Part shown: piece after piece, positions 21,596 to 63,009 of the stretch | How the letters are laid out: each line of letters opens with the position of its first letter | How positions within the stretch are numbered: the stretch's first letter is position 1 | IMG/VR virus record: IMGVR_UViG_3300046727_000675 | Coordinates: 1 to 64,000 of that record | DNA: 64,000 nt | DNA from: a virus | Reading direction: 5' to 3' (one strand) | The notes under the pieces: generated by a model | Databases searched by the model: none | Told to the model about the DNA's origin: nothing | Seen by the model: the letters and a program-made list of their open reading frames with translations, nothing else | Program-made: the position numbers and the translations under genes

Positions 21596-23025
21596 TCTCG
21601 GTCCTGTGCCCGACTCGGGGAAGACCGAGGATGGCGGCGGATATGATCGCAAGCGCCTGCGCGACGTCGCGCGGAATGGGCCACATCGAATTTTTGCTCT
21701 ACGTTGATAATGATGATCCGTCGCTCGACGAATACCGAAAGATTCACGCGGTTCACACGCGTGGAGAAGACAGCAGTAGGGACCTGGTGACTTTGATCGT
21801 CGGCCCGCGGATGACGAAGATGACCGAGTATTGGAACATCTTGGCGCGCGCCGCGAAGGGCGATATTTTTCTGCAGGCCAACGACGACATCGCCTTCAGA
21901 ACCACGGACTGGGACAAGATGGTGCAGGACGCGTTCGACGCGTCGCCCGACAAGATCCTGCTCGCGCACGGCGACGACCTCGGCTGCGGCGGCGCCCGCG
22001 CCGGCGCGCACTGCTTCGTCCACAAAAAGTGGGTCGACGCGGTCGGGTACTTCATCGCGCCGCACTTCTCGTCCGACTACGGCGACACGTGGCTCAACGA
22101 CGTGGCGAACGAGCTCGGCCGGCGCGTGGTCCTGCCGGTCGTCATCGAGCACCTGCACGTGATCTACCGCAAGATGGAGCCCGACGCGACGTACCGGGAG
22201 CGCCTCGCGCGGCATGCGAAGGACGACGTGGACCAGCTCTACAAGGACCTGACGCCGCGCCGCGCGCTCGACGTCGCGAAGCTTCGCTCCGCAATCGCGG
22301 GCCGGCCGCTGTGGACGATCATGGTGCTCACGCAGCCGAGCCGGGAGGAGTACCTGAAGCGGCTCAAGACGCGCCTGCTTCCGCAGCTTGGAGGCGCGCC
22401 GGTCGACCTGCTGATCGAGCCGTGTGACACGCGCCTGACGGTCGGCGCGAACCGCCGGCGCATGACCGAGAAGGCCGCGGGGGAGTATGTCAGCTTCATT
22501 GACGATGATGATCTGGTCGCGGAGGACTACGTCGCGCGGGTCCTGCCGCTGCTCGACGGGGTCGACTACGTCGGCTTCCGGGTGCAGACGTTCGTCGACG
22601 ACCACGCGATCGAGCCGACGCACCACGCGCTTAAGTACGGCGGGGTCGGCTACGACGAGCGGATGAAGCGGAACTACCGTGACATCTCGCATCTGAACCC
22701 CGTGCGCCGCGAGCTCGCGCTCAGGGGCGTGATGGACGGCGGGGTCGGCGAGGACAGCCGCTGGGCCGACAGCCTGCGCGAGCAGGGGCTTTTGAAGACC
22801 GAGCACGTGGTCGACGAGAACGAGGTCATGTACTTCTACTACGCGCGCAGCCGCAAGGACGACGCGGACTACAAGTTTGTGACGATGCCGCCGGAGACGG
22901 TCGCCACCAAGTTCGACGGCATCGGCTTTGCCCGGGAGACGAAGACGTGCCCGCACTGCGGGTCGGGCGCGACGGCGCCCGGGAACGGCGCCATGATCTG
23001 CAATCAGTGCGGGAAGGGGTTCTGA
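21592..23025 (+). CDS. Two-domain GT-A glycosyltransferase with C-terminal zinc ribbon
   Basis: 477 residues. The first domain (about 1-230) starts ISVLCPTRGRP and has a DNDDPSLDEY acidic site. The second (about 240-445) starts IMVLTQPSREEY and has FIDDDDLVAEDYV, the DxD-like metal and nucleotide-sugar site. Two GT2-like catalytic units are therefore joined. The C-terminal 30 residues are a zinc ribbon, CPHC and CNQCGKGF, resembling the terminase tail. GTG 21592 overlaps the previous stop with AAGGAG at 21581-21586. It may make a disaccharide or alternate polymer. Confidence 0.75.
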   Translation: MISVLCPTRGRPRMAADMIASACATSRGMGHIEFLLYVDNDDPSLDEYRKIHAVHTRGEDSSRDLVTLIVGPRMTKMTEYWNILARAAKGDIFLQANDDIAFRTTDWDKMVQDAFDASPDKILLAHGDDLGCGGARAGAHCFVHKKWVDAVGYFIAPHFSSDYGDTWLNDVANELGRRVVLPVVIEHLHVIYRKMEPDATYRERLARHAKDDVDQLYKDLTPRRALDVAKLRSAIAGRPLWTIMVLTQPSREEYLKRLKTRLLPQLGGAPVDLLIEPCDTRLTVGANRRRMTEKAAGEYVSFIDDDDLVAEDYVARVLPLLDGVDYVGFRVQTFVDDHAIEPTHHALKYGGVGYDERMKRNYRDISHLNPVRRELALRGVMDGGVGEDSRWADSLREQGLLKTEHVVDENEVMYFYYARSRKDDADYKFVTMPPETVATKFDGIGFARETKTCPHCGSGATAPGNGAMICNQCGKGF

Positions 23026-23831
23026 TGGGAATACTGACGACCGCGTCGCGTAACTACTGGGACCGGCGCCCGTGCAACGTGGGGCACAGCCCGGCCGAGG
23101 TCGGCTCGATGGCCTGGTCGCGCGAGGTGACGTCGCGGAAGTACACGGTCGAGCCGCACATCCGGCGCTTCGCGGACTTCGACCGGTGGCGCGGGAAGGA
23201 CGTGCTTGAGGTCGGGTGCGGCATCGGCACCGACACGCTGGAGTTCCTGCGCGCCGGCGCGCGAGTCGACGCGATGGACCTGTCGCAGGCATCGATCGAC
23301 CTGGCGAAGAAGCGCTGCCGGGACTTCGGGGAACGCGTCAAGTTTATCTGCGACGACGCCCAGAACTGGGTGCCGTGGCTGAACAACCCGCACTACGACC
23401 TGGCGTACTCGTTCGGGGTTATTCACCACGTGGAACACCCGAAGACGGTTCTCGAGGCGATGCGCTCGGCGCTGAAGCCTGGCGGCGAACTGCGAGTCAT
23501 GCTCTACGCGCGGCGCAGCCTGAAGTTCCTGCTCGGCGAGCGGCCGGAGGCGCAGGCCGGGTGCCCGATCGTGAACTGGTACTCGGAGCGCGAGGCGCGG
23601 CGCCTGGTCGAGTCCGCGGGCTTCGAGATCATGAGCGTCGAGAAGACGCACATCTTCCCGTGGCGCGTCAAGGACTACGTGAACCACAGGTACGTAATGA
23701 GGTGGCCGTACCGGCTGATGAGCGAGGGGCTCTTCCGCTGGCTCGAGCGGCGCGCGGGGCACCACCTGCTGGTCATCGCGCGCAAGAAGATGGAGATCAA
23801 GTTCAAGGACTCGATCGAGGTGAACTATTGA
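23025..23831 (+). CDS. Class I SAM-dependent methyltransferase
   Basis: The SAM-binding motif I, VLEVGCGIGTDTLEFLRAG, is near residues 67-85, with the acidic end of strand 2 (VDAMDLSQASIDLA). Motif IV-like YDLAYSFGVIHHVEHP and a post-IV LKPGGELRVMLYA follow. This is the Methyltransf_11 type that often methylates sugars or small acceptors. The C-terminal 90 residues (SEREARRLVESAGFEI) are the usual lid. The start ATG overlaps the previous stop. In this island it probably decorates a glycan, though that is inferred. Confidence 0.8.
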   Translation: MGILTTASRNYWDRRPCNVGHSPAEVGSMAWSREVTSRKYTVEPHIRRFADFDRWRGKDVLEVGCGIGTDTLEFLRAGARVDAMDLSQASIDLAKKRCRDFGERVKFICDDAQNWVPWLNNPHYDLAYSFGVIHHVEHPKTVLEAMRSALKPGGELRVMLYARRSLKFLLGERPEAQAGCPIVNWYSEREARRLVESAGFEIMSVEKTHIFPWRVKDYVNHRYVMRWPYRLMSEGLFRWLERRAGHHLLVIARKKMEIKFKDSIEVNY

Positions 23832-24172
23832 GGCTGACGGAGCTCGAGCCGAAGTTCCTGAAGGTCACCGTGCCGAACAAGGAGTACGCCTACGTCGAGA
23901 CCATCGCGGAGGCGGACGGGGTAGACTTCCTCTGCCCCGAGTGCTTCCGCAGGCGCGGCGAGGCCCGCGGCGTCCATGGGGTCATCTGCTGGCGGCCGGC
24001 GGTGCCGTTGACGGAGAACATCGGCCCGGGGCGGTGGGAGCTGACGGGAAACAACTTTGAGGACCTGACGCTGGTCGCCGGGTCGAGTTCGGTGAAGCTG
24101 ACGGGCGGCTGCAACGCGCACTTTCTAATCGCGAATGGGGAGATCCAGTTCTGTGACGACTCAGGAAAATAG
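23828..24172 (+). CDS. DUF6527-like small protein
   Basis: A 114-residue protein with CPECF, a middle GRWELTGNNFEDLTL, then CNAHFLIANGEIQFCDD. That arrangement resembles the DUF6527 family (small Cys/His proteins seen in phages and ubiquitin-like operons). TTG 23828 overlaps the methyltransferase stop. The assignment is by remembered motif pattern only. The role is unknown; it may bind a metal. Confidence 0.5.
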   Translation: MRLTELEPKFLKVTVPNKEYAYVETIAEADGVDFLCPECFRRRGEARGVHGVICWRPAVPLTENIGPGRWELTGNNFEDLTLVAGSSSVKLTGGCNAHFLIANGEIQFCDDSGK

Positions 24173-25433
24173 CTTCGGGCGGGGGATCGCGGTCTGCGGG
24201 CTCGGCCGCCTGGGCGCGCCGGTGGCGGCGGCGTTCGCCGCGTCGGACGTGCCGGTGATCGGGCTCGACGTGGACGAGGCGAAGGTCCGCCACGTCAACG
24301 AGCGGCGCGCGCCGACGGTCGAGCCGGACCTGCAGGCCTACCTGGACCTGTTCCAGGTTCGCAACAACCTACGGGCGACCGCGGACCCGGCGATGGCCGT
24401 GGCGTCGTCGGACGCCTGCATCTTCGTGACGCCGACTCCGTCGCTTGACGACGGGAACTTCAACCACGACCTTCTGCTCGCGGCGGTCGAGTCGATCGCG
24501 CAGCAGGTGCGGAACCAGAAGCGCCGCAACTATCTGTTCATCGTCAGCTCCACCGTGGCCCCGAAGACGATGCAGAAGCGCGTGCGCCCCGTGATCGAGC
24601 GCCACCTCGGACGCGTCCCGTTCCTCCTGGCCTACAAGCCGGAGTTCATCGCGCTCGGGACGGTGCTGCGCGACCTGCACTACGCCGACGTGATGCTGAT
24701 CGGCGAGGACTCGGAGGAGGCGGGCGACCGGGTCGAGGGGCTCTACCGGCTGATGGCGCTCGGCCCCGTGAACGTGCGGCGCATGAGCCTGGTCGAGGCC
24801 GAGCTGGCGAAGATCAGCCTCAACTGCGCGGTCACGATGAAGATCAGCTTCGCGAACCAGGTCGGGCTCGTCGCGCGGCGGCTCGGCGCGGATCCACACC
24901 GGGTGCTCGCCGCCGTGGCCTGCGACAAGCGGATCGGACCCGGCGCGCTGCGCGCGGGGCTGCCGTACGGCGGACCGTGCTTTCCGCGCGACAACCGGAT
25001 GTTCCGCTTCGTCGCGGCGACCTACGGGGTGCAGGTTCCGCTCGCGATCGCGACGGACGTGGTGAACAAGATGGTGCTCGATGACATCCTGGAGAATCTG
25101 CTCGGGCGCGGCGGCGCCATCGGCATCCTCGGCCTGGCCTACAAGCCGGGCACGCCGGTGCTCGACGAGTCGCCGGGGCGGTGGTGGCTGCGCGCGCTGA
25201 CGCAGAAACACCGGACGGCGCGCGCGCACGACCCCGTGGCGCCCCACCCGCACTCGCTCGAGGACGTGCTGAGCTGCCAGACGGTGGTGGTGGCCACGGC
25301 CTGGCCGGAGTACGAGTCCCTGACTCTGCTGGCCGACGCGGTCCTGATCGACCCGTTCGGCGCCGTGAAGGAAGTGAGACGGCACGCGCGGGCACGAGTC
25401 GCGCCGCAGCCGGTGATGGAGATGGCGGAATGA
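24153..25433 (+). CDS. UDP-sugar / GDP-mannose 6-dehydrogenase-like protein
   Basis: Two-step NAD-dependent oxidation of a nucleotide sugar to its uronic acid is the family role. An N-terminal Rossmann motif (GIAVCGLGRLGAPVAAAF), the PTPSLDDG stretch and the catalytic Cys in YGGPCFPRD are present. The C-terminal domain has GILGLAYKPGTP, the UDP-binding part. GTG 24153 follows GGGGAG at 24137-24142. A longer ATG at 24135 is possible. This supplies an activated uronic sugar to the transferases beside it. Whether the substrate is UDP-glucose, UDP-HexNAc or GDP-mannose cannot be told. Confidence 0.85.
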   Translation: MTTQENSFGRGIAVCGLGRLGAPVAAAFAASDVPVIGLDVDEAKVRHVNERRAPTVEPDLQAYLDLFQVRNNLRATADPAMAVASSDACIFVTPTPSLDDGNFNHDLLLAAVESIAQQVRNQKRRNYLFIVSSTVAPKTMQKRVRPVIERHLGRVPFLLAYKPEFIALGTVLRDLHYADVMLIGEDSEEAGDRVEGLYRLMALGPVNVRRMSLVEAELAKISLNCAVTMKISFANQVGLVARRLGADPHRVLAAVACDKRIGPGALRAGLPYGGPCFPRDNRMFRFVAATYGVQVPLAIATDVVNKMVLDDILENLLGRGGAIGILGLAYKPGTPVLDESPGRWWLRALTQKHRTARAHDPVAPHPHSLEDVLSCQTVVVATAWPEYESLTLLADAVLIDPFGAVKEVRRHARARVAPQPVMEMAE

Positions 25434-26212
25434 GCATCAAGGGAAAGAGCCTGCACCTGCTGACGCCCATGTATGGCGGGGTCAACACGGTGAACTATTT
25501 CGACGCGTTCCAGAAGCTGGTGATCGCGGTGCAGAAGTACGGCATCCCGTTCTGGTACTCGAACATCTGGAACGAGTCGCTGGTCACCCGCGCGCGGAAC
25601 AAGCTCGCCGACACGTACCTGAAGGAGGGCGAGGCGACGCACGCCGTGTACATCGACGCGGACATCGGGTTCGACGCGGACGAGCTGCTGTCGATGCTCG
25701 AGCGCGAGGACGAGGACATCATCGTCGCGCCGTGCTCGAAGAAGAGCGTGCGCTGGGACCGGGTGCAGCGCATGATCCGGAAGAACCCGGGGCGCGAGTA
25801 CACGGGCGAGGAGCTCCGCCGCGCCGGCGGCGACCTGGTCTTCAACTTCGAGGCGTTCGAGGGAGAGCGCACCTGGGACCTGCAGAAGATGTGGGACCTT
25901 CGCAACGGCGGCACGGGCATCATGATGATCCGCCGAGGAGTGTTCGAGAAGTTTAAGCAGGAGTACCCCGACCGGTGGTACGAGCCGCGGTCGGACGACA
26001 CGGTGCTCCCGGGGCCGATCCACGACTTCTTCCGCGCGGGCATCAACCCGGACACGCGCGAGTACGACTCGGAGGACTACTGCTTCTGCATCGACTGCAA
26101 GCGGATCGGCTTCAGCGTCCGTCTGTGCCCGTGGGTGCGGACGACGCACATGGGGTCGAACCTGTTCTACGGCGACCTGCCGGCGGTCTCGAAGCTGGCG
26201 GGGGAGCTGTGA
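25430..26212 (+). CDS. GT-A glycosyltransferase-like protein
   Basis: A 260-residue protein with YIDADIGFDADELLSML, whose DxD is the metal site of GT-A transferases, and ARNKLADTYLKEGE before it. Late residues DYCFCIDCKRIGFSV and WVRTTHMGS are typical of GT2-like proteins in phages. It overlaps the dehydrogenase stop. It closes the glycan island. Donor and acceptor unknown. Confidence 0.75.
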   Translation: MSIKGKSLHLLTPMYGGVNTVNYFDAFQKLVIAVQKYGIPFWYSNIWNESLVTRARNKLADTYLKEGEATHAVYIDADIGFDADELLSMLEREDEDIIVAPCSKKSVRWDRVQRMIRKNPGREYTGEELRRAGGDLVFNFEAFEGERTWDLQKMWDLRNGGTGIMMIRRGVFEKFKQEYPDRWYEPRSDDTVLPGPIHDFFRAGINPDTREYDSEDYCFCIDCKRIGFSVRLCPWVRTTHMGSNLFYGDLPAVSKLAGEL

Positions 26213-52935: not shown

Positions 52936-53397
52936 ATGAACAGAAACACGGTGTACGTCGAGCTCGACTTTGCCGATGCTGACGACGCCACGCGGCCGGC
53001 GGTCGATCGTGCCATGGCGATCGCGAGGCGCGCCGCGAGGCTCGGCTGTGCGATTGTCGGCTATAATCATGAAGGACCGGGCGGCGGATGGCCGTCAGCC
53101 GCGTTCATGTGCCCGAACAGGAGCGTGGCCGATGCGTTGGTCACGCGTTTCTATGGCAACAAAGGCCGGGAGCCACTCGACTCATACATCGTCTTTGAGC
53201 CGCTTGACGCGGCGGAGGTGGCAAAGTCGCTCGACACCGCCATCGAGAACGGTTACGACGTGCTCGATGGGTGGACGGCGGCGGAGATCGCTGACGACCT
53301 CGCCTCGTACGATGCCGGCTTCGAGGGCGTGGACCCGCGAGCGATCGCGCCGCATGCGCAGTCATGGCTTGACGCGCGAAGGGCGGCGGTCCGATGA
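52936..53397 (+). CDS. Hypothetical early protein, 153 residues
   Basis: ATG 52936 has AGGAGGAA upstream and is the first gene after promoter B. Mixed alpha/beta with TVYVELDFADADDATRPAVDRAM and GCAIVGYNHEGPGGGWP. It may be a small globular phage regulator. No family recognised. The end overlaps the next gene by 4 nt. Confidence 0.65.
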   Translation: MNRNTVYVELDFADADDATRPAVDRAMAIARRAARLGCAIVGYNHEGPGGGWPSAAFMCPNRSVADALVTRFYGNKGREPLDSYIVFEPLDAAEVAKSLDTAIENGYDVLDGWTAAEIADDLASYDAGFEGVDPRAIAPHAQSWLDARRAAVR

Positions 53398-54044
53398 GCG
53401 TCGCTCCCTGGAAGCAGCCGGAGGAAGTCCCCATCTATATGCTGAAGGACGGGCAGCGGTTCCGCCTGAACTTCCTGGACGTGGGATCCGACCGGGTCGT
53501 GACGGGCACGCTCATCAGCGTCAACAAGTGCTCGGCGCACGTGGCGCTCGACGGGACCGGCGTCCGGTCGTTCACGGCGCACGGGGAGGACGGCGAGGAG
53601 CGCGAGGTCACGATGCCGGGGCGGGCGCACGAGACGTACTGGGCGCCGAACGCGCTGGTCGAGCCGGTGGACGAGTTTGTACCGTTGGAGCAGTTCGCAG
53701 ACAAAGGAGGCCAAACAATGGCCAAGATCAAGAAGACACCGAAGGAGAAGAAGGCGAAGGAGCCGAAGCAGCTGCTGACCACGCGGTACGAGGTCACGGC
53801 GAAGTCGGCGGTGAACGCCGGGTACGCGGATCCGGAGAAGAAGACGCAGGCCGCGCTGATCTACCGCTTCGTGCGGGACGCGAAGACGCCCCCGACGTTC
53901 GCGGAGATCCTCGCCGGCATCGACAAGCGCAGCCTCAAGACGGAGTCCAAGAAGCTCGAGAACAACTTCCGCTGGTACATCAACGACCTGCGCAAGAAGG
54001 GGTTCGTCAAGTCCGTCGAGGAGCGCGAGCCCGCCGCCGCCTGA
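53394..54044 (+). CDS. Hypothetical protein with winged-helix-like C-terminus
   Basis: 216 residues in two parts. The first 100 form a beta-rich unit (DGQRFRLNFLDVGSDRVVTG, CSAHVALDGTGVRSF). The second part, after the Lys-rich AKIKKTPKEKKAKEPK, resembles a winged helix (ALIYRFVRDAKTPPTFAEIL, WYINDLRKKGFVK) similar to the C-terminus of the methyltransferase at 54975. An internal in-frame ATG at 53718 has AAAGGAGG at 53703-53710 and could give a 108-residue C-terminal protein. Confidence 0.65.
   Translation: MSVAPWKQPEEVPIYMLKDGQRFRLNFLDVGSDRVVTGTLISVNKCSAHVALDGTGVRSFTAHGEDGEEREVTMPGRAHETYWAPNALVEPVDEFVPLEQFADKGGQTMAKIKKTPKEKKAKEPKQLLTTRYEVTAKSAVNAGYADPEKKTQAALIYRFVRDAKTPPTFAEILAGIDKRSLKTESKKLENNFRWYINDLRKKGFVKSVEEREPAAA
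53703..53720 (+). promoter_or_regulatory. Internal ribosome site and in-frame start
   Basis: AAAGGAGG (53703-53710) and ATG 53718, 7 nt apart, in frame with the gene that starts at 53394. It would make the winged-helix-like half on its own. Confidence 0.5.
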
Positions 54045-54108: not shown

Positions 54109-54978
54109 ATGACCGGACACACCGCCGTCCCCGCGCCCGACCGCCGCGCGCTCGCGTCGTTCTGGGCGTTCGCGCTCGAGCGGCAGGCCGTCTGGCAGCG
54201 CCGCGCCCGCGGCCTGCCGCCGCCCTGGACCGACGACCCGGTCCTGCGCGCGCACAGGTTCACCAACATCTACCGGGAGCTCGACCGCGGCACGATCGCC
54301 GCGCACCGCTACTACGCCGCCGAGGCGCGCCGGGGGAGCCCGCGCGACCTCGCGTGGCGCGCCGTGTGCTTCCGGCTGTTCAACCGCGCCGCGACGCTCC
54401 AGGAGGTCGACTTCCCGTCGTGCGCCGCGTGGCCGCGGATGCGCCGCGGCGCGCTCGACGCGCTGCGGGCCAGGTCCGCCGCCGGCCGGCCGCTGTACAC
54501 GGGCGCCCACCAGGTGCGCGCGTGCACCGTGGACTGGGCCGGCGAGCTGCTCGACTCGGCGCACGCGTTCCTGCAGGGATGGGACTTCCGCGAGCGCGGC
54601 GCCGCCGCGTTCTACGCGGGCCTCAAGGAGGTCCGCTTCATGGGCGAGTTCCTCGGCCACCAGGTGTGCCGCGACCTCGCCGAGGAGGGCGCGCTCTCCG
54701 GCGGCCGCGACTGGTGCGTGGTCGGCCCCGGCGCGAGGGCCGGCCTGCGCCTGCTGTACGGCGCCGGCCTGCCGCGCGCCGCCGAGCCCGCCGCGATCGC
54801 GGCGCTGCTCGAGACGCAGTCGGTCCGCGCGCTCGTCGCCGCCGGAGGCCGCCGCATGCGGGCGCCGGAGGCGGAGCACGCGCTCTGCGAGTTCTTCAAG
54901 TACGACCGGATCCGGAGCAGCGCCGGCTTCGCGCGCACCAAGGGCGGCCCGTTCCGCCCGAGCGAGGAGCCGCTGTGA
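54109..54978 (+). CDS. Alpha-glutamyl/putrescinyl thymine pyrophosphorylase or HMU-kinase-helical-type protein
   Basis: 289 residues, all helical. RFTNIYRELDRGTIAAHRYY and WRAVCFRLFNRAATLQEV match the pattern of the HMUDK_hel family (the helical domain of 5-hydroxymethyl-dU DNA kinases and of alpha-glutamyl/putrescinyl thymine pyrophosphorylases), which act in making hypermodified pyrimidines in phage DNA. It has no P-loop of its own, so the kinase step must come from another gene. It is followed directly by DNA methyltransferase, Vsr and kinase genes. A short structured gap (54045-54108) with a GGATCG/CGATCC stem precedes it. Family from motif memory; chemistry inferred. Confidence 0.7.
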   Translation: MTGHTAVPAPDRRALASFWAFALERQAVWQRRARGLPPPWTDDPVLRAHRFTNIYRELDRGTIAAHRYYAAEARRGSPRDLAWRAVCFRLFNRAATLQEVDFPSCAAWPRMRRGALDALRARSAAGRPLYTGAHQVRACTVDWAGELLDSAHAFLQGWDFRERGAAAFYAGLKEVRFMGEFLGHQVCRDLAEEGALSGGRDWCVVGPGARAGLRLLYGAGLPRAAEPAAIAALLETQSVRALVAAGGRRMRAPEAEHALCEFFKYDRIRSSAGFARTKGGPFRPSEEPL

Positions 54979-56453
54979 GGGTCATCGCCATCAACAGCTA
55001 CGCCGGATCGCTGCTGATCGCGGCGCGCATGGCCGGCGCCGAGGTCCTGTGGTCGCTCGAGGACCACGGCTACGCGAGGGAGACGCAGCGCGCCAACTTC
55101 CCGGGCGTGCCGTACCGGGCGGAGCCGCCCTGGCCCGACGAGGACCTGGCCGACGTCCCGGTCATCGCGCACCCGCCGTGCGCCGCGTTCTCCGTGCAGA
55201 ACACCGGCGCGCGCCAGGCCGCGTCCCGCGGCGTCGAGGGCGGCCACTTCAAGAGCACGAAGGCCGTCGTCGACTACGCGGTCGGCCGCGGCTCGCCGGC
55301 CGTGATGATCGAGTCGGTGCCCGGCGCCTACGAGGGCACGCGCGGGTTCTACGACGGCATCGCGGCGGCGTCCGGGTACGGCGTCTACAGGATCCTGCAG
55401 AACGCCGCTGCGTTCGGCGTCCCGCAGTGGCGGCCGCGGTTCTGGTGCGTGCTGCTGCGCCCGGACCTCGCGGCGCGGCCGTTCGTCGTGCACCACCGGC
55501 CGGAGATGCGCACCGTCGCCGAGATACTCGAAGGCATCGATCCCGATGGCCCGGCCGTGAAGGCCGTCGTGCACGACTTCGACCGCACGGTCCGATCGCT
55601 TCGCGCCGCCGGCATCGCCGATGACGAGGCGGCCGCGCTGCTGCGCGGCGAGCACGGATATGGCCACCTGCACCGCGGCCTGCGAGCCGGCTTCGGCGTA
55701 AAGCTCACGACCGAGAACCGCACCGCGACGCTAAAGAAGTACGTGGGCATCAGCTTCAACTCCCAGATACCGCACATCCTGGACCCGACCGGCTCCTGCG
55801 CGACGCTCATCAGGACGAGCATCTGGATACACAACGAGCGGCCGCTGCCGGCCGCCGGCTACTGCCGTCTGATGGGCTACCCCGACGGCTACGTCTTCAG
55901 GCCGGAGTCGGAGCGCCTCGCGCTCCTGTCCCGCGGCGTCGTGCCGGCGGTCGCGGCATGGCTGCTCGACACGGTCCGCCGCCACCTCGAGGACCGGCCG
56001 CCGGACTCCGTCGAATACGGCGACTTCCTGTTCAACATGAAGCCGGGAGACACGGCGAACATGCTCATCACCGACGACGAGTTCCGGCAGACGAAACTGG
56101 ACATGGAGTCGCGCGACTCGCACGAGGATACGGCGAAGCGAGAACGATCGCCGCGCGCCGCGAGGCAGGCCGCGGCGCCGCGCGAGCCGCGCATCGGCGC
56201 CAGGTGGCGGCTCGCGAAGATCCCGGCGGCTCGCATGGAGTACGTGCGGAAGCTTATGTCGAGGGACTGCCGCACGCACAACGCGGCAGTGGCGAAGGCG
56301 CTCTCCGGCGAGCGCGGCGGGATCGCGTTCGACGAGATCATGGCCCGCGCAAGGGCCGACGGCTGGGAGACGACCAGCCCGAACCCGAGGGGCATCCTCA
56401 AGTGGCACCTGGACCTGCTGCGTAAGATGGGGATCGTGGAGGAGGCGAAGTGA
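54975..56453 (+). CDS. C5-cytosine DNA methyltransferase with winged-helix C-terminal extension
   Basis: 492 residues. Motif I INSYAGSLLIAARMAG, motif IV AHPPCAAFSVQN with the catalytic Cys, motif VI IESVPG (E kept, N replaced by S), motif VIII VPQWRPRFWCVL, and motif X-like GVVPAVAAWLLDTV. The last 100 residues add a winged-helix-like region (IAFDEIMARARADGW, then ILKWHLDLLRKMGIVEE). GTG overlaps the preceding stop. A phage C5 methyltransferase may protect DNA from host restriction or mark replicated DNA. Confidence 0.85.
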   Translation: MRVIAINSYAGSLLIAARMAGAEVLWSLEDHGYARETQRANFPGVPYRAEPPWPDEDLADVPVIAHPPCAAFSVQNTGARQAASRGVEGGHFKSTKAVVDYAVGRGSPAVMIESVPGAYEGTRGFYDGIAAASGYGVYRILQNAAAFGVPQWRPRFWCVLLRPDLAARPFVVHHRPEMRTVAEILEGIDPDGPAVKAVVHDFDRTVRSLRAAGIADDEAAALLRGEHGYGHLHRGLRAGFGVKLTTENRTATLKKYVGISFNSQIPHILDPTGSCATLIRTSIWIHNERPLPAAGYCRLMGYPDGYVFRPESERLALLSRGVVPAVAAWLLDTVRRHLEDRPPDSVEYGDFLFNMKPGDTANMLITDDEFRQTKLDMESRDSHEDTAKRERSPRAARQAAAPREPRIGARWRLAKIPAARMEYVRKLMSRDCRTHNAAVAKALSGERGGIAFDEIMARARADGWETTSPNPRGILKWHLDLLRKMGIVEEAK

Positions 56454-56800
56454 CGCGGTCCGAGATCATGTCGCGGATCCGGTCGGTCAGCGCGCTCGAG
56501 GCCGAGGCCCGGCCGATCGCGTCCCGCCGCGCGGGCTGCCGGCTGCGGCACCAGCCGAAGGGGATCCACGGCCGCCCGGACTACGCGAACAAGGCGAGGC
56601 TCACCGCGGTGTTCGTCCACGGCTGCTGGTGGCACCGCTGCCCCGCGCACTTCAAGGCGCCGAAAACAAACAGGAAATTCTGGGCAAGGAAGTTCGCGCG
56701 GAACGTCGCGCGGCACCGCGAGGTGTCCCGCGCGCTGCGGCGCCGCGGGTGGCGCGTCTTGACGATATGGGAGCACGAGGTAAGGGGGAGGAAGCCGTGA
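56450..56800 (+). CDS. vsr: Very short patch repair endonuclease (Vsr)
   Basis: 116 residues with the Vsr signature: MTRSEIMSRIRSVSALEAEA, HGRPDYANKARLTAVFVHGCWWHRCPAHFKAPK, KFWARKFARNV and VLTIWEHEV (zinc-binding and active-site residues in the HGCWWHRCPAH segment). Vsr nicks beside T:G mismatches formed when 5-methylcytosine deaminates. GTG overlaps the methyltransferase stop, as in the host dcm-vsr pair. The co-location is strong support for the methyltransferase being active. Confidence 0.9.
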   Translation: MTRSEIMSRIRSVSALEAEARPIASRRAGCRLRHQPKGIHGRPDYANKARLTAVFVHGCWWHRCPAHFKAPKTNRKFWARKFARNVARHREVSRALRRRGWRVLTIWEHEVRGRKP

Positions 56801-57717
56801 AGACGATCGTACTCGAGGGGCCCGACGGGAGTGGCAAGACGACGCTCGCGGCCGCGCTCGAGAGGCTCGGCTACGCCCGCGCGCACCGCGGGGTCCCGAA
56901 GCCGGGCCTGACCCCGGAGGGGATGATGTGGACGTACCTCGCGCCGCTGCTGCCGGCGCGGGGGAGCGACGGCCTGCGGGTGTTCGACCGCCTGCACCTC
57001 GGAGAGACCGTGTACGGCCCCGTCATGCGCGGCGGCTCGCAGCTCACGGAGCTGGGCGCGGCGCTCATCGACTCGTACGTCGAGGCGATCGACGGGCAGG
57101 TCGTCGTGTGCCTGCCGCCGTGGCGGTTCGTGCTCGCGAACTGGCTGCGCACCAAGAAGGACCAGTACGTGCGGACGCCGCGGCAGCTGCTGCGGATATA
57201 CCAGGGCTACCAGCGGCTGCTGTTCGGCGCGAAAAAGAACCGCGACTACCTCCACTTCGACTACACGCGGCACGGGGCGGCGACGGTCGCGGCCGCGCTG
57301 CGGGCGCTCTCCGGGTTCCCGCTGCCCGCGGACTGCGCCGGCTCGCAGCGGCCGCGGTTCGTCTTCGTCGGGGACCGCGCCGGGCGCGACGGACCCGACC
57401 TCCCGTTCATGTCGTGCGACGGGCCGGCCGGCTGGCTCCACGGGTGCCTCGCCGACGCCGGCTACCAGTGGCACGAGACCGCGTTCGCCAACGCGCTCGA
57501 CCCCGGCGGGCTCCCGCACAACCTGTCGCAGCTCGCGACGCGGTTTCCGGCGCGGCCGAGGTTCGTGGCGCTCGGCGCCGAGGCCGACCGCGGGCTGAAC
57601 GCGGCGCTGATCGAGCACCACGCGCTGGGGCACCCGCGGGACGCGGCCGGGAGCAGGGGACGCGCGCGGTACGTGCGCGCGCTGGCGGACATCCGCCGGG
57701 GGACGAGGACGCGATGA
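56797..57717 (+). CDS. P-loop nucleotide kinase with UDG-like C-terminal domain
   Basis: 306 residues. Walker A LEGPDGSGKTT at the N-terminus is of the thymidylate-kinase type, with VFDRLHLGETVYGPVM and a VVVCLPPWRFVLANWLRTKKDQYV lid-like region. From about residue 185 a separate domain has RFVFVGDRAGRDG, then NALDPGGLPHNL, and RFVALGAEADRGLNAAL followed by HALGHP, an order like the uracil-DNA-glycosylase fold. In the modification block it may phosphorylate the modified deoxynucleotide (T4 gp1-like), and the UDG-like part may read or process a modified base. GTG overlaps the Vsr stop. Confidence 0.7.
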   Translation: MKTIVLEGPDGSGKTTLAAALERLGYARAHRGVPKPGLTPEGMMWTYLAPLLPARGSDGLRVFDRLHLGETVYGPVMRGGSQLTELGAALIDSYVEAIDGQVVVCLPPWRFVLANWLRTKKDQYVRTPRQLLRIYQGYQRLLFGAKKNRDYLHFDYTRHGAATVAAALRALSGFPLPADCAGSQRPRFVFVGDRAGRDGPDLPFMSCDGPAGWLHGCLADAGYQWHETAFANALDPGGLPHNLSQLATRFPARPRFVALGAEADRGLNAALIEHHALGHPRDAAGSRGRARYVRALADIRRGTRTR

Positions 57718-57914
57718 TGGAAAAATACGGAAACATAGTGGTGATGGCGCCGTTCATTTTATTTTGGCTTTGTATGATGTTTGAGCGTCTTCCCGCGCGC
57801 TGTTGCTACTGCCGGCGGTGGAGTTGGATGTTCAAGATGCAGGACGTAGTATTTTCAGGAAACGGACCTGAGTCTTGCGAGGCGGGACGTTGCCATCCTG
57901 GATGCGCGCGATGA
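57714..57914 (+). CDS. Small Cys-rich membrane protein, 66 residues
   Basis: ATG overlaps the kinase stop. One membrane helix (IVVMAPFILFWLCMMF) and then CCYC and C-x5-C-x3-C at the C-terminus, suggesting a metal-binding membrane peptide. The DNA is less GC-rich than the flanking genes. No family named. Its end overlaps the next gene. Confidence 0.5.
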   Translation: MMEKYGNIVVMAPFILFWLCMMFERLPARCCYCRRWSWMFKMQDVVFSGNGPESCEAGRCHPGCAR

Positions 57915-58786
57915 TCATCCGGGGCGGGGACGTCTACGAGGCGTGGCGGCAGCTGCTGTGGCAGCTCACGGTGAACGGCCGCGAGGTGTCGCCGCGCGGG
58001 CTCGCGACCAAGGAGATTCTCGGGGTGCAGCTCCGCATCGACGACGCCTACCACAACATCATCGCCGACCCGGTTCGGAGGCTCAACTTCCGCTTCCTCG
58101 TGGCCGAGATGATCTGGATGGCGGCGGGGCTCGACGACCTCGCGCCGCTGACGCGCTACAACAGGGAGATGGCGAAGTTCTCGGACGACGGCGCGAGGCT
58201 CGCCGGCGCCTACGGGCCGCGGCTCGCGCAGCAGTGGACCTACGTCGTCGACACGCTGCTGTACGACGCAAGCTCGCGCGGCGCGGTGAGCGGAATCTGG
58301 CGCTGGCCGCAGGGGCGGTCGAAGGACGTCCCGTGCACGCTTTCCATGCAGTGGCTCATCCGCGCCGGGCTCCTCGAGACGATCGTGACGATGCGCAGCT
58401 CCGACGCCTGGCTCGGGATCCCGTACGACGTGGCCTCGTTCACCTTCCTCTCGAACCTGCTCTGCTGCTCGCTGAACGAGACGCGCCCCGAGCTGAACCT
58501 GCGGCTGGGCGGCCTCATCATGAACCTCGGCTCGTCGCACCTCTACGGGCCGAACTGGGAGGCCGCGTACAAGATCGCGGACCTGGGGCTCGGCCGCTCC
58601 GTCAAGAGCCCCCCGATCATCGAGTCGGCGCCGCTCGCGGCCGTCGCGCAGAGCCTGGTGAACGACGCCGATCCCGCGTGGGACCTGCTGGAGGGCCCGT
58701 GGCTGTCGTGGGCGCGCTGCCTGCGGGCCGGCACCAGCGAGAAGGCGCGGGTCATCCTCGAGGAGCTGGAGGACGGCCGTGCGTGA
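57911..58786 (+). CDS. Thymidylate-synthase-family dCMP hydroxymethylase-like enzyme
   Basis: 291 residues with the thymidylate synthase fold: glutamate E66 in the VAEMIWMAAG segment, catalytic Cys C142 in VPCTLS, R162 and D165 in RSSD, and H210/Y212 in SSHLYG. At the residue equivalent to E. coli ThyA Asn177 there is Asp (D173, in IPYDVASF). In T4 dCMP hydroxymethylase this Asp sets dCMP specificity, so I infer the substrate is dCMP rather than dUMP. Methylene-tetrahydrofolate would be the one-carbon donor. Adjacent genes encode a kinase and a dCMP deaminase. ATG 57911 overlaps the preceding stop. Confidence 0.75.
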   Translation: MIIRGGDVYEAWRQLLWQLTVNGREVSPRGLATKEILGVQLRIDDAYHNIIADPVRRLNFRFLVAEMIWMAAGLDDLAPLTRYNREMAKFSDDGARLAGAYGPRLAQQWTYVVDTLLYDASSRGAVSGIWRWPQGRSKDVPCTLSMQWLIRAGLLETIVTMRSSDAWLGIPYDVASFTFLSNLLCCSLNETRPELNLRLGGLIMNLGSSHLYGPNWEAAYKIADLGLGRSVKSPPIIESAPLAAVAQSLVNDADPAWDLLEGPWLSWARCLRAGTSEKARVILEELEDGRA

Positions 58787-59237
58787 GAGCCGCGAGGCGT
58801 ACTTCGTCAAGATGCTGGGGCTCGTCGCCGCGCGCTCGACCTGCGCGCGGCGCGCGGTCGGGGCGATCATCACCGACGTCCAGGGCCACGTGCTGTCGAT
58901 GGGCTACAACGGCGTGCCGTCCGGGGTCGCTCACTGCGTGGCCGGCGAGCGCACGTGCGACGGCTTCCAGGACCCGAAGGGCGACGTCCGGCGGTGCCTC
59001 GCGGTGCACGCCGAGCAGAACGCGCTGCTGCAGTGCTCGCGGCTGGACCTGGCGCACACGGTCTACGTCAGCTGCACGCCGTGCTTCGCGTGCGCGAAGA
59101 TGATCCTGAACACGCCGATCGCGCGCGTCGTCGCCGTCGCGCCGTACGTCGGCGACGACCTCGGGCAGGAGCTGCTGGTGAGACGGGAGAGGCTTTTCTA
59201 CTATGACGCAGACGCAGACCTCGCTGTCCTTTACTGA
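58779..59237 (+). CDS. dCMP deaminase-family protein
   Basis: 152 residues. The zinc and catalytic site is VHAEQNAL (H, A, E) and CTPCFACAK (PCxxC). It converts dCMP to dUMP, or in this setting could act on hydroxymethyl-dCMP to give the dUMP form. GTG overlaps the hydroxymethylase-like gene by 8 nt. Function from family; the altered substrate is a hypothesis. Its 3' end overlaps the polymerase by 35 nt. Confidence 0.9.
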   Translation: MRESREAYFVKMLGLVAARSTCARRAVGAIITDVQGHVLSMGYNGVPSGVAHCVAGERTCDGFQDPKGDVRRCLAVHAEQNALLQCSRLDLAHTVYVSCTPCFACAKMILNTPIARVVAVAPYVGDDLGQELLVRRERLFYYDADADLAVLY

Positions 59238-61068
59238 CGGGACAAGCTTCGGCCCCGCCGGGGACCGCGGACCGCGGCGCCAGGGGTCGGGGCTGAGGCC
59301 CGACGCGCTGCCGGACCAGTTCCCGGAGGGCGCGTGGCCCGCGATCGACGTGGAGTCGGACGGGCTCGGCCGCGACGCGCTGCCGGTCGGCATCGTCGTC
59401 GCGACGGCCGACGAGTCGCGCTACTTCCCGTTCGGGCACGCGGAGGGGCGGCAGCATGACCCGAAGGCCGTGCGCGTGTGGTGCGAGGAGCACCTGGCCG
59501 GCGAGGACCTGATCTTCCGCAACGCGAAGGGCGACCTCGACTGGCTGCGCCGGTGGGGGCTCGACCTCGAGGCGCTCGGCGCGCGGCCGCACGAGATCCA
59601 GCACCCCGCCGCGCTGCTCGACGACCGCCGCCGCAAGTTCAAGCTCGAGGACCTGGCGCAGGACCGCCTGGGCCGCGGCAAGCTGGCGCCGCCGCCGGGC
59701 AAGATCCACGAGTTGCCGGCCGACGTGGTCGCGCCGTACGCGCGCGAGGACGGGCGTCTGACCCGCGAGTGCTGGTTCAGCTACCTGCCGGACATCGAGC
59801 GCGAGGGGCTCGGCGAGGTGCTGGCGCTCGAGGACGGCTTGATCTGGTCGACCATGGCGATGGAGCGCGCCATGGCGCCGATCGACGCGCCGAAGCTCGA
59901 GCGGTGGATAGCCGAGGTGACGGCCGAGCACCAGAAGCGGCTGATGGACATCTGGCGCCTGACCAAGTTGCGCGTGAACCCGGACTCGGGCCGGGACATG
60001 CGCAAGTTCTTACAGAACTTCGGCGTCGCGCACACGGGCTTCACGACCGAGAAGGGGAACGAGGCCTTCACCGAGGAAGCGCTGCTGCGCCACTCGGGAC
60101 GCTATGAAGGAGACGGAAAAGATCGAAGATGGGTTATCACGAACCCGGCGGTCCACGCCGCGCTCGAGGCGCGGCAGCTCGCGTCGCTGCTCTCGAAGTA
60201 CCTGCTGAAATACCGGGACGCGCTGCTGCCCGGCGGCCTCCTGCCGTACCAGCTGCACCAGCTGCGCGGCGACGAGAACGGCACGATCACCGGGCGCTAC
60301 GCGTCGTCGAAGGTGAACATCCAGCAGGTCTACAAGCCGGATAAGCAGCCGGCCCTGACGCAGCGGTGGGTCATCCGCGAGCTGTTCCTCGCCGGCGAGG
60401 GCGCGGACCTGCTCGACGCCGACGCGAGCCAGATCGAGTACCGGCTGTTCGCGCACAACTCGTCGGTGCCGCCGCCGCACTCGACGCGCCTCATCGAGGC
60501 CTACAACGACGACCCGGACACGGACTTCCACCAGCTCGTGACCGACGAGATCCTGCAGAACGTAATGGAGCGCGTGTACGCGAAGAACTGGAACTTCCGC
60601 AAGCTCTACGGCGGCGGCGTGGCCAAGTCGGCCGCGATGACGGGTCTTCCGCTCGAGCGGTGCAAGGAGATGGACGCGCAGTACGACCGCCGCTTCCCCG
60701 AGGCCACGCGCCTGCTGCGCTTCTGCGAGCGGCTCGCCGAGCGGCGCGGGTACGTGAAAACGATCTCCGGCCGGCGGTCGCGCTTCCAGGAGGGCGACCG
60801 GTTCTACAAGGCGCTGAACTCGGTGCTGCAGGGGTCAGCGGCGGACATCATGAAGAAGAAGATCCTGCGGCTGTACAACGAGCGCAAGACCCTCGAGATC
60901 GTCCTGCGCGCGACGGTGCACGACGAGGTGTGGGGCGATCGAAAAAATAAGAGCAAGAAGTCAGCGAGGCTGCTCGAAGAGTGCTTCGCCGTGCAGGAGT
61001 ACAAGCTCAACGTGCCGATCACGTGGAGCATCGGCTACGGCAAGAACTGGGCGGAGGCGATGACGTGA
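59203..61068 (+). CDS. DNA polymerase family A with 3'-5' exonuclease
   Basis: 621 residues. The exonuclease has AIDVESDG (Exo I), IFRNAKGDLDWL (Exo II) and YAREDGRLT (Exo III). Polymerase motif A is DADASQIEYRLFA, motif B is AKNWNFRKLYGG with F at the place of E. coli Phe762, and motif C is VHDEVWG. This is the replicative polymerase of the phage. There is no 5'-3' exonuclease. ATG 59203 lies inside the deaminase gene. The sequence is intact. Confidence 0.95.
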   Translation: MTQTQTSLSFTDGTSFGPAGDRGPRRQGSGLRPDALPDQFPEGAWPAIDVESDGLGRDALPVGIVVATADESRYFPFGHAEGRQHDPKAVRVWCEEHLAGEDLIFRNAKGDLDWLRRWGLDLEALGARPHEIQHPAALLDDRRRKFKLEDLAQDRLGRGKLAPPPGKIHELPADVVAPYAREDGRLTRECWFSYLPDIEREGLGEVLALEDGLIWSTMAMERAMAPIDAPKLERWIAEVTAEHQKRLMDIWRLTKLRVNPDSGRDMRKFLQNFGVAHTGFTTEKGNEAFTEEALLRHSGRYEGDGKDRRWVITNPAVHAALEARQLASLLSKYLLKYRDALLPGGLLPYQLHQLRGDENGTITGRYASSKVNIQQVYKPDKQPALTQRWVIRELFLAGEGADLLDADASQIEYRLFAHNSSVPPPHSTRLIEAYNDDPDTDFHQLVTDEILQNVMERVYAKNWNFRKLYGGGVAKSAAMTGLPLERCKEMDAQYDRRFPEATRLLRFCERLAERRGYVKTISGRRSRFQEGDRFYKALNSVLQGSAADIMKKKILRLYNERKTLEIVLRATVHDEVWGDRKNKSKKSARLLEECFAVQEYKLNVPITWSIGYGKNWAEAMT

Positions 61069-61220
61069 CACGGCTTAGGCTTAAGAAGATAAAATGTCTC
61101 TCTGCCCGCAAGAACCGGCGCGGCGGCGCGTGCGTTTGCCGGCGCGAAGTGTCCCATGACGGCGATTGCCGGTGCTCGCGCTGCAAAAAAACATGGAATA
61201 GAAAGAGAGGAACAAACTGA
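61065..61220 (+). CDS. Basic zinc-finger-like peptide, 51 residues
   Basis: GTG overlaps the polymerase stop. Lys/Arg-rich with a Cys cluster: CVC, C and CRCSRCKK, ending WNRKRG. It could bind nucleic acid. The DNA is less GC-rich than its neighbours. No family recognised. Confidence 0.55.
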   Translation: MTRLRLKKIKCLSARKNRRGGACVCRREVSHDGDCRCSRCKKTWNRKRGTN

Positions 61221-61221
61221 C

Positions 61222-62493
61222 ATGGCGACAGAACCCCTGATCAACTGCCCGAAGTGCGGCGCCGAGATCGCGGTGACCGAGGCCCTCGCGGGCCCGATCG
61301 TCAAGCGGCTCGAGGCCGAGACGAAGAAGAAGCTCGACCTGCAGGCCGACGCGCTGAAGAAGCGCGAGCAGGCGCTCGCGGCGGGCGAGGCGGCCGTCGA
61401 GCAGACGGTGCGGCAGCGGCTCGCGGCCGAGTCCCAGCGCGTCGAGGCCGGGCTGCGCGCGGAGATCAGCGGCGAGCTCGGCGCGTCGTACGAGAAGTCG
61501 AAGAAGCTCGCCGAGGACGCGCTCGCCGCGGAGCGCCGGCGGGCCGAGGGCCGCGAGGCCGAGCTGCGCGGGCTGACGGCGAAGCTCGCCGAGGCCCAGG
61601 AGGCGCAGGCCGGGGCGGAGCGGGCCCGGCGCGACTTCGAGGAGAAGACGCGCGAGCTGAACCTCACCGTGGAGCGCCGCGTCACCGAGGAAGCCGACCG
61701 GCTGCGGTCGCGGCTCACGGAGGAGATCACCGGCGCCGAGCGGACGAAGCTCGCCGAGAAGCAGCACACGATCGACCAGATGGCGTCGCAGATCGAAGAC
61801 CTGAAGAAGCGCGCCGAGCAGGGCAGCCAGCAGCTGCAGGGCGAGGCCCAGGAGCTCGTGCTCGAGTCGGACCTTCGCCTGGCGTTCCCGACCGACGAGG
61901 TCGAGCCGGTCGGCAAGGGCGTCCACGGCGCCGACTGCGTGCAGCGCGTGGTCACGGTCGCTGGCGCCGCGGGCAGGATCCTGTGGGAGTCGAAGCGCAC
62001 GAAGAACTGGGGGCCGGATTGGCTCGCGAAGCTGCGCGACGACTGGCGGAGCTCGGGCGCCGACGTGGCGGTGATCGTGTCGCAGGCGCTGCCGGAGGGG
62101 GTCGCGACGTTTGCGCTGGTCGAGGGCGTCTGGGTGTGCGCCCCGGCCTACGCGGTGCCTCTGGCCGCCGCGCTGCGCCAGGCCATCACGGGGATCGCGA
62201 AGGCGCGCGCGGCGCAGGCCGGTCAGCGCACGAAGGCGGAGCTCGTCTACGCGTACCTGACCGGCGACGGCTTCCGCCACCGGATCGAGGCGATCGTCGA
62301 GCGGTTCGGCGGGCTGCGCGAGGACCTGGAGAAGGAGGAGAAATTCATGACCAAGCAGTTCGCGAAGCGGCGCGAGACGCTGGCGCAGGCCGTGACGAGC
62401 CTCGGCGGCCTCTACGGCGACTTGGAGGGCATCGCCGGCGCGGCGGTCGCCGAGCTCCCGGCGCTGTCGCTCGGGACGGGGGAGGAATCATAA
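61222..62493 (+). CDS. DUF2130-family protein, coiled coil and nuclease-like domain
   Basis: 423 residues. N-terminal zinc ribbon (NCPKCGAE), a long coiled coil (about residues 30-210, Ala/Glu/Arg/Leu-rich), then the DUF2130 core ILWESKRTKNWGPDWLAKLRDD and AVIVSQALPEG. The E-x-K with later D resembles a PD-(D/E)xK-type nuclease. C-terminus with KEEKFMTKQFAKRRE. ATG 61222 after AGGAAC. It may act in DNA processing; nuclease activity is inferred. Confidence 0.75.
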   Translation: MATEPLINCPKCGAEIAVTEALAGPIVKRLEAETKKKLDLQADALKKREQALAAGEAAVEQTVRQRLAAESQRVEAGLRAEISGELGASYEKSKKLAEDALAAERRRAEGREAELRGLTAKLAEAQEAQAGAERARRDFEEKTRELNLTVERRVTEEADRLRSRLTEEITGAERTKLAEKQHTIDQMASQIEDLKKRAEQGSQQLQGEAQELVLESDLRLAFPTDEVEPVGKGVHGADCVQRVVTVAGAAGRILWESKRTKNWGPDWLAKLRDDWRSSGADVAVIVSQALPEGVATFALVEGVWVCAPAYAVPLAAALRQAITGIAKARAAQAGQRTKAELVYAYLTGDGFRHRIEAIVERFGGLREDLEKEEKFMTKQFAKRRETLAQAVTSLGGLYGDLEGIAGAAVAELPALSLGTGEES

Positions 62494-62494
62494 T

Positions 62495-62725
62495 ATGGAG
62501 AAAAAGTGGAGATTCAAACGGTGGTATCCCAAGACAATCGGTGGGAAGATTATTCTGACGGGCAGGGTAACCGCCACGCCGTGCTTGGGGCGAACCGTTC
62601 TGTGGATGACCGCCGGAGGTCTGAATACCCATTTCAAATTTGAGCTTCCTGTGTCTTCGCGTCACTTTCGGCATGGCGACACGGTGACCATCGTGGTGTC
62701 GCGCGATCGCAGGAGAAAAAGATGA
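62495..62725 (+). CDS. Hypothetical small beta-rich protein, 76 residues
   Basis: ATG 62495 immediately after the DUF2130 stop. Basic, beta-rich (KIILTGRVTATPCLGRTVL, HFRHGDTVTIVVSRDRR). The DNA is less GC-rich than the flanks. No family named. Overlaps the MazG-like gene by 4 nt. Confidence 0.6.
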   Translation: MEKKWRFKRWYPKTIGGKIILTGRVTATPCLGRTVLWMTAGGLNTHFKFELPVSSRHFRHGDTVTIVVSRDRRRKR

Positions 62726-63009
62726 CCAGCAACGAGCGCGAGCGGATCGCCCTGGACCTCGCCCAGGAGGAGTGCGCCGAGCTGGCCGTGGTCATCTCGA
62801 AGGTGAAGCGCTTCGGGATCCTGTCCGACAACGACGGCAGGATGCCGGCGAACAACCGCGCGCTGCTCATCCAGGAGATGGCCGACGTCGAGTACTTCAT
62901 CAACTTCATGCGCCGCGAGTACAAGGTCGACGAGGACGAGTTCAGGGACGCGTACCACAGGAAGTGCCAGAAGGTGAACAAATATCTGTACCCGGAGGAG
63001 AAGACATGA
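62722..63009 (+). CDS. MazG-like nucleotide pyrophosphohydrolase
   Basis: 95 residues, all helical: LAQEECAELAVVISKVKRFG (E-E-x-x-E metal-binding helix) and IQEMADVEYFINFMRREY (E-x-x-D motif) fit the all-alpha NTP pyrophosphohydrolase superfamily. In modified-base phages such enzymes can remove dCTP or other competing dNTPs. ATG overlaps the previous stop. Confidence 0.8.
   Translation: MTSNERERIALDLAQEECAELAVVISKVKRFGILSDNDGRMPANNRALLIQEMADVEYFINFMRREYKVDEDEFRDAYHRKCQKVNKYLYPEEKT

What the first reader, a model, noticed from the sequence alone, without database searches (positions are those of the whole stretch)
54109..59237. Candidate pyrimidine hypermodification pathway
Seen together: HMUDK_hel/thymine-pyrophosphorylase-type protein, C5 methyltransferase, Vsr, kinase with UDG-like tail, hydroxymethylase-like thymidylate synthase, dCMP deaminase, DNA polymerase and, further on, a MazG-like enzyme. 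This matches the known logic of phages that replace or decorate a base (synthesis of modified dNMP, kinase, removal of normal dNTP, post-replicative addition). The mix of a dCMP-type hydroxymethylase with a thymine-type pyrophosphorylase is not, to my knowledge, a standard combination.
Basis: partly seen in the sequence, partly recalled or inferred. Interest (0 to 1): 0.85.

Follow-up and report, generated by a model that had tools for sequence, protein, structure and literature searches.

The report
Phage cytosine-modification operon with odd methyltransferase
This virus of bacteria carries a compact gene set that very probably replaces cytosine in its DNA with hydroxymethylcytosine and then decorates it, using an unstudied virus-only relative of DNA methyltransferases whose cofactor pocket has been rebuilt; this matters because it points to an untested way of chemically altering DNA.

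Summary
All eight named genes are present; those at 54109-57717 overlap by 4 bp each, so they form one operon. The base modified is most probably cytosine, not thymine. The thymidylate-synthase homologue has Asp at E. coli position 177 (dCMP signature, as in T4 gp42 and MilA), and the record separately carries ThyX for dTMP. Stenotrophomonas phage AXL3, with related kinase, hydroxymethylase and deaminase genes, has DNA cut only by A/T-site enzymes (published).

HMUDK_hel with a dCMP-type enzyme is indeed unusual: 59 of 60 HMUDK_hel loci carry the dUMP type. The thymidine-pathway partners (PF18748 kinase, amino acid:DNA transferase) were not found.

The main new point is the "C5 methyltransferase". 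It belongs to a family found here only in viral contigs (28 sequences). Base chemistry residues are fully kept (Cys81, Glu119, Arg163, Arg165), but the SAM pocket is remade: Trp41 to Asp (27/28), GxGG loop lost, Asn304 to Lys/Arg (27/27). All 24 family records with a thymidylate-synthase homologue have the dCMP type; none encodes CmoA, arguing against plain methylation and against CmoX. I propose it works on hydroxymethylcytosine in DNA; that step is inferred.

The parts
54109..54978 (+). HMUDK_hel protein (289 aa), helical domain named after 5-hmdU DNA kinase; weak resemblance to HhH DNA glycosylases
   Evidence: PF18723 E 8e-42; phrog_2396; AlphaFold pLDDT 85, best PDB matches are AlkA-type glycosylases but not significant, E 0.29
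54975..56453 (+). C5-cytosine-methyltransferase homologue with remodelled SAM pocket (HPPC motif; HhaI W41->D, N304->R); the last ~130 aa are an extension not seen in the closest relatives
   Evidence: PF00145 E 1e-11; residue table against M.HhaI and relatives
56450..56800 (+). Vsr-type endonuclease, GRPD and HGCWWH motifs present
   Evidence: PF03852 E 9e-11; TIGR00632 E 4e-26, 91.7 bits against cut-off 97.85; sequence
56797..57717 (+). P-loop nucleotide kinase (residues ~1-180) fused to a UDG-superfamily domain (~183-306); proposed (hydroxymethyl-)dCMP kinase
   Evidence: phrog_761; AlphaFold pLDDT 87, kinase part matches YorR, dNK and TMK folds; UDG part by homologues; whole-length match in two viral proteins
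57911..58786 (+). dCMP hydroxymethylase (thymidylate-synthase superfamily; Cys146, Ser167, Asp177 in E. coli numbering)
   Evidence: PF00303 E 9e-17; best PDB match MilA CMP hydroxymethylase E 3e-23; alignment with T4 gp42, SPO1 gp29, E. coli ThyA
58779..59237 (+). dCMP deaminase (dCMP to dUMP, feeding ThyX)
   Evidence: PF00383 E 1e-16; phrog_174 E 4e-33
59203..61068 (+). Family A DNA polymerase
   Evidence: PF00476 E 5e-43; phrog_17 E 6e-71
62722..63009 (+). MazG-like nucleoside triphosphate pyrophosphohydrolase (candidate dCTP remover; a second PRA-PH/MazG protein lies outside the window at record 64995-65447)
   Evidence: phrog_4856 E 9e-18; second copy PF01503 E 2e-10

Best explanation
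A phage cytosine-hypermodification operon. The TS homologue turns dCMP into 5-hydroxymethyl-dCMP; the P-loop kinase (with the host) raises it to the triphosphate; MazG/PRA-PH enzymes remove dCTP; dCMP deaminase and ThyX keep dTTP supplied; the phage PolA copies the genome with hmC. HMUDK_hel and the atypical C5-transferase then act on hmC in DNA. Shown by sequence: gene identities, dCMP-type active site, remodelled C5-transferase pocket, conserved linkage. Inferred: hydroxymethylation rather than methylation, kinase substrate, dCTP removal, and all post-replicative steps. For the C5-transferase I propose that Cys81 adds to C6 of hmC, the hydroxyl (possibly first phosphorylated) leaves, and a small nucleophile or cofactor held by Asp41 and Lys/Arg304 is joined to the exposed methylene.
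For: Asp177 and Cys-Thr at 146-147 as in T4 gp42, against Asn177 in SPO1, YuA and E. coli. Asp177 is the published marker of modified-cytosine contigs, in which PRA-PH and dCMP deaminase genes co-occur (PMC8670742). ThyX in the same record. AXL3, with a related kinase-UDG, D177 TS, deaminase and ThyX, resists 35 of 37 enzymes and is cut only by TasI and Tru1I, whose sites are A/T only (PMC7504290). The C5-homologue family keeps Cys81, Glu119, Arg163 and Arg165 in 28/28 but has Asp41 in 27/28 and Lys/Arg304 in 27/27. 24/24 family records with a TS have D177; Fisher p 4e-20 against HMUDK_hel loci, relatedness ignored. Precedent: engineered M.SssI couples thiols to 5hmC in DNA (PMC7176277).
Against: No virion DNA has been analysed. 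A dCMP methylase cannot be excluded from sequence: T4 gp42 keeps the Trp80 that the other hydroxymethylases here lack. Vsr beside the C5-homologue would fit ordinary 5mC formation, although Vsr is not conserved in the family. Glu40 and part of motif I remain, so SAM or a SAM analogue might still bind. HMUDK_hel has no shown activity on hmC, and the 5-hmdU DNA kinase tested in vitro does not act on hmC (PMC6457204).
Confidence: 0.7

Rival explanations
1. Thymidine hypermodification of the M6/ViI type: the TS homologue makes 5-hmdUMP, and HMUDK_hel with the kinase-UDG protein phosphorylates 5-hmdU in DNA for later decoration.
For: HMUDK_hel is clearly PF18723, and nearly all its relatives sit beside dUMP-type enzymes; a P-loop kinase is nearby.
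Against: TS has Asp177; ThyX handles dTMP; no PF18748 kinase and no PF18724 transferase in the record, which looks near-complete.
Confidence: 0.08
2. CmoX-type carboxymethylation: the C5-homologue transfers a carboxymethyl group from Cx-SAM to cytosine, independently of the hydroxymethylase.
For: Lys/Arg at HhaI N304, the CmoX Arg350 position that binds the carboxyl group (PMC12783734); PPC motif.
Against: No CmoA in 27 of 27 records; SPPC is HPPC; the residue after Glu40 that stacks on adenine (Phe48 in CmoX) is Asp; the GxGG loop is lost, whereas CmoX-like TurkishDelight gp123 keeps it; the constant partner is a dCMP hydroxymethylase, whose product already occupies C5.
Confidence: 0.1
3. Plain 5-methylcytosine system: the TS homologue or the C5-homologue makes 5mC, and Vsr repairs the T:G mismatches that follow deamination.
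For: C5-homologue and Vsr overlap by 4 bp, as in bacterial dcm-vsr pairs (general knowledge).
Against: SAM pocket remodelled in all relatives; Vsr found only in the window among the 28 records or loci scanned; best PDB match of the TS homologue is a hydroxymethylase.
Confidence: 0.08
4. Ordinary nucleotide metabolism without a modified genome.
For: dCMP deaminase, kinase, ThyX, MazG and PolA are common in phages with normal DNA (general knowledge).
Against: A dCMP-type TS homologue has no role in normal dTMP synthesis; conserved linkage to the C5-homologue.
Confidence: 0.04

Closest known systems
T4 dCMP hydroxymethylase pathway (gp42, dNMP kinase, dCTPase, glucosyltransferases)
   Same: dCMP-type TS homologue, kinase, deaminase and pyrophosphatase logic
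   Different: No relative of T4 beta-glucosyltransferase found by sequence; PolA replication; a C5-transferase homologue and HMUDK_hel sit where decorating enzymes would be expected
Stenotrophomonas phage AXL3 gp27-gp31
   Same: Kinase-UDG, D177 TS homologue, dCMP deaminase, NTP-PPase, ThyX; DNA resistant to G/C-site enzymes
   Different: AXL3 has a Methyltransf_23 protein next to the NTP-PPase in the stretch examined; no C5-homologue or HMUDK_hel was detected there
M6/YuA thymidine hypermodification
   Same: HMUDK_hel protein, TS homologue and PolA in one cluster
   Different: TS is dUMP type (Asn177); has PF18748 kinase, amino acid:DNA transferase, radical SAM and PLP genes, of which the first two were searched for and are missing here
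CmoX 5-carboxymethylcytosine system (Synechococcus phage S-B43)
   Same: C5-MTase homologue with PPC and a basic residue at HhaI N304
   Different: No CmoA; adenine-binding residues and glycine loop altered; linked to a dCMP hydroxymethylase
M.HhaI-type DNA cytosine-5 methyltransferases
   Same: Catalytic Cys81, Glu119, Arg163, Arg165
   Different: Trp41 to Asp, Asn120 to Ser, Asn304 to Lys/Arg, GxGG lost

Membership tests
dCMP hydroxymethylase (TS superfamily) | Catalytic Cys (E. coli C146) and Asp at position 177 | tested here: met
dCMP hydroxymethylase (TS superfamily) | Deoxyribose-type Ser167 rather than the Ala of CMP-preferring MilA | tested here: met
   MRSSD motif aligns with E. coli QRSCD; meaning of the residue from PMC5175136
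dCMP hydroxymethylase (TS superfamily) | Adds water (hydroxymethyl), not hydride (methyl) | not testable with these tools
   Trp80 segment missing as in SPO1 and YuA enzymes, but T4 gp42 keeps it; needs an assay
M6-type thymidine hypermodification | dUMP-type hydroxymethylase (Asn177) | tested here: not met
   Asp177
M6-type thymidine hypermodification | PF18748 5-hmdU DNA kinase and PF18724 amino acid:DNA transferase | tested here: not met
   No match in the 87-kb record
HMUDK_hel (PF18723) | Profile match over the full domain | tested here: met
   144 bits against cut-off 25, profile positions 3-276 of 281
Canonical C5-MTase (SAM-dependent) | Catalytic residues Cys81, Glu119, Arg165 | tested here: met
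   28 of 28
Canonical C5-MTase (SAM-dependent) | Motif I FxGxGG, aromatic or hydrophobic adenine stacker at 41, Asn304 in motif X | tested here: not met
   NSYAGS, Asp41, Arg304
CmoX | SPPC motif and Arg350 equivalent | tested here: not met
   Arg present, but SPPC is HPPC
CmoX | CmoA Cx-SAM synthase in the same phage | tested here: not met
   0 of 27 family records; a host CmoA cannot be excluded
UDG superfamily (kinase tail) | Profile match and GE/PF, N, HP motifs | tested here: met
   4 of 8 tails match PF03167; window tail itself below threshold, motifs kept with Glu to Asp in the first
Vsr endonuclease | Profile match and catalytic Asp/His motifs | tested here: met
   PF03852 over cut-off; GRPD and HGCWWH present; NCBIfam TIGR00632 slightly under its cut-off

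The most novel reading that the evidence does not exclude
The C5-homologue family is a new enzyme class: a methyltransferase fold that no longer methylates but uses its Cys-C6 adduct to swap the hydroxyl of hmC in DNA for another group, with a non-SAM or altered cofactor held by Asp41 and Lys/Arg304. HMUDK_hel would have been recruited several times from thymine to cytosine chemistry.
Probability: 0.3. Interest if true: 0.87.

Novelty: new variant of a known kind. Interest (0 to 1): 0.62.

Why it matters
A phage enzyme that derivatises hydroxymethylcytosine without canonical SAM would add a reaction to DNA-modification chemistry that so far is known to me only as an artificial activity of C5 methyltransferases. 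It would also give a sequence-based, testable link between dCMP hydroxymethylases and an unassigned decorating step, extend HMUDK_hel from thymine to cytosine pathways, and offer possible tools for labelling hmC. The dCMP reading would also explain the so far unexplained restriction resistance of the published phage AXL3.

Tried and rejected
CmoX assignment: attractive because of Arg304, rejected for lack of CmoA and altered cofactor residues. Near DNA match to known phages: none. PDB search with HMUDK_hel: only weak, implausible matches to IMP dehydrogenase; fold search: glycosylases on top but not significant. Cellular relatives of the C5-homologue: none confirmed in one genome-contig scan. 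One close-relative scan with the kinase gave a single contig. PDB search with the phrog_14998 profile: nothing, so calling it a glycosyltransferase is unproven. A single origin of cytosine-linked HMUDK_hel: not supported, at least three origins are forced by well-supported branches, with the caution that these rows are long branches. Key papers (Lee 2018/2021, Iyer 2013) could not be read; statements on them are from memory or from citing papers. Malformed calls that gave nothing: 4, 5, 24, 65, 77, 78, 90.
Full report
What is there. The window is the first 64,000 bases of an 87,304-base virus record. The ORF cut by the two record ends is homologous to the N- and C-terminal parts of one protein in relatives and stays in frame across the join, so the record looks near-complete. 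HMUDK_hel, C5-homologue, Vsr and kinase-UDG overlap by 4 bp each; TS homologue, dCMP deaminase and PolA overlap by 8 and 35 bp, with a gap of about 190 bases between kinase and TS.

Which base. The TS homologue keeps Cys146 and Ser167 and has Asp at E. coli position 177. T4 gp42 (dCMP) also has Asp; SPO1 gp29, YuA gp17 and E. coli ThyA (dUMP) have Asn. The best PDB match is the CMP hydroxymethylase MilA, E 3e-23. Asp177 was found to separate modified-cytosine from unmodified contigs in the MetaGPA study (PMC8670742). The record has its own ThyX for dTMP, so dCMP deaminase plus ThyX can supply dTTP while the TS homologue works on dCMP. A direct link to phenotype comes from phage AXL3: it has a kinase-UDG, a D177 TS homologue, dCMP deaminase, NTP-PPase and ThyX; its DNA was cut by only two of 37 enzymes, both with A/T-only sites (PMC7504290). 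Cytosine modification is therefore the best reading; hydroxymethylation rather than methylation is inferred.

Is the mix unusual. I collected HMUDK_hel loci from viral contigs and known phages. After merging near-identical contigs, 61 clusters had a TS homologue; one was unreadable at the position, 59 were Asn177 and one (L013) was Asp177. Two further contigs, G015/L134 and G022/L141, emerged from the C5-homologue family. In a tree of 74 HMUDK_hel proteins the four cytosine-linked ones are not one group; well-supported branches force at least three origins, all on long branches, where placement is unsure.

The C5 methyltransferase is not ordinary. Its relatives form a family of 28 sequences including the window. 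Against M.HhaI all keep Cys81, Glu119, Arg163, Arg165 and Glu40. All have Asn120 to Ser; 27 of 28 have Trp41 to Asp; all 27 readable ones have Asn304 to Lys or Arg; in the nine sequences examined residue by residue the FxGxGG loop reads NSYAGS or close to it. So base flipping and covalent catalysis appear intact while cofactor binding is changed. Asn304 to Arg is the mark of CmoX, which uses carboxy-SAM (PMC12783734), but CmoX keeps the adenine-binding residues and comes with CmoA; no CmoA is present in any of 27 records, and the CmoX-like TurkishDelight gp123 keeps FSGCGG, Phe41 and SPPC.

Linkage. Of 27 family records, 24 have a TS homologue and all 24 are Asp177. Against the HMUDK_hel loci the difference has p 4e-20 by Fisher's test, without correction for relatedness. 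Kinase, dCMP deaminase, PolA and a PRA-PH/MazG protein recur with it; the UDG tail is degenerate or absent in some. Near the C5-homologue sits either a phrog_14998 protein of unknown function (L122, L126, L127, L132, L142; a few kb away in L120) or HMUDK_hel (window, L134). This suggests a slot for alternative decorating enzymes.

Proposed mechanism. dCMP becomes hm-dCMP, is phosphorylated, replaces dCTP and enters DNA. If all cytosines carry hydroxymethyl, a C5 transferase cannot methylate C5; it must act on hmC or on residual cytosine. C5 methyltransferases are known to couple thiols to hmC and to remove its hydroxymethyl group in vitro (PMC7176277; PMC11347137). A family that keeps the covalent chemistry but changes the cofactor pocket could be an evolved version of that activity. 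HMUDK_hel may be a DNA-glycosylase-like base-flipping domain, but the fold match is not significant, and the 5-hmdU DNA kinase tested in vitro does not phosphorylate hmC (PMC6457204), so its role here is open: partner in phosphorylating hmC, or a flipping or targeting subunit.

What is not shown. No chemistry has been measured. The kinase substrate, dCTP removal, the C5-homologue reaction and the role of Vsr are inferences. The family sample depends on short peptide patterns, so frequencies are estimates.

Noticed in passing
L004 (phage AXL3) 8938-9747: AXL3 gp28, published as thymidylate synthase, has Asp177 and is probably a dCMP hydroxymethylase; this would explain the reported resistance to all tested G/C-site enzymes.
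   Followed up: partly
L159 (Streptomyces phage TurkishDelight) 769-5633: gp121-gp125 look like a CmoX/CmoY-type locus: ParB-like proteins, C5-MTase with SPPC and Arg at HhaI 304, asparagine-synthetase-like protein, methyltransferase.
   Followed up: partly
window 18266-26209: Sugar gene cluster among structural genes: glycosyltransferases, pyruvyl transferase, UDP-glucose dehydrogenase.
   Followed up: partly
L042 8200-9992: UDP-glucose dehydrogenase-like gene followed by a phrog_14998 protein directly upstream of the C5-homologue; candidate sugar-transfer pair for hmC.
   Followed up: partly
L002 4359-4907 (record 66359-66907): MT-A70 adenine methyltransferase domain in the same virus record.
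   Followed up: no
window 61156-62493: DUF2130 protein (PF09903, E 1e-63) inside the replication region.
   Followed up: no
window 53394-54044 and about 56080-56450: A small C-terminal domain occurs in the gene before the operon and appears again as the C-terminal extension of the C5-homologue; relatives carry it in a separate upstream gene.
   Followed up: partly
L038 11092-11823 and L040 11098-11889: Kinase genes whose UDG tail is degenerate, so the tail is not required for the kinase in all phages.
   Followed up: no
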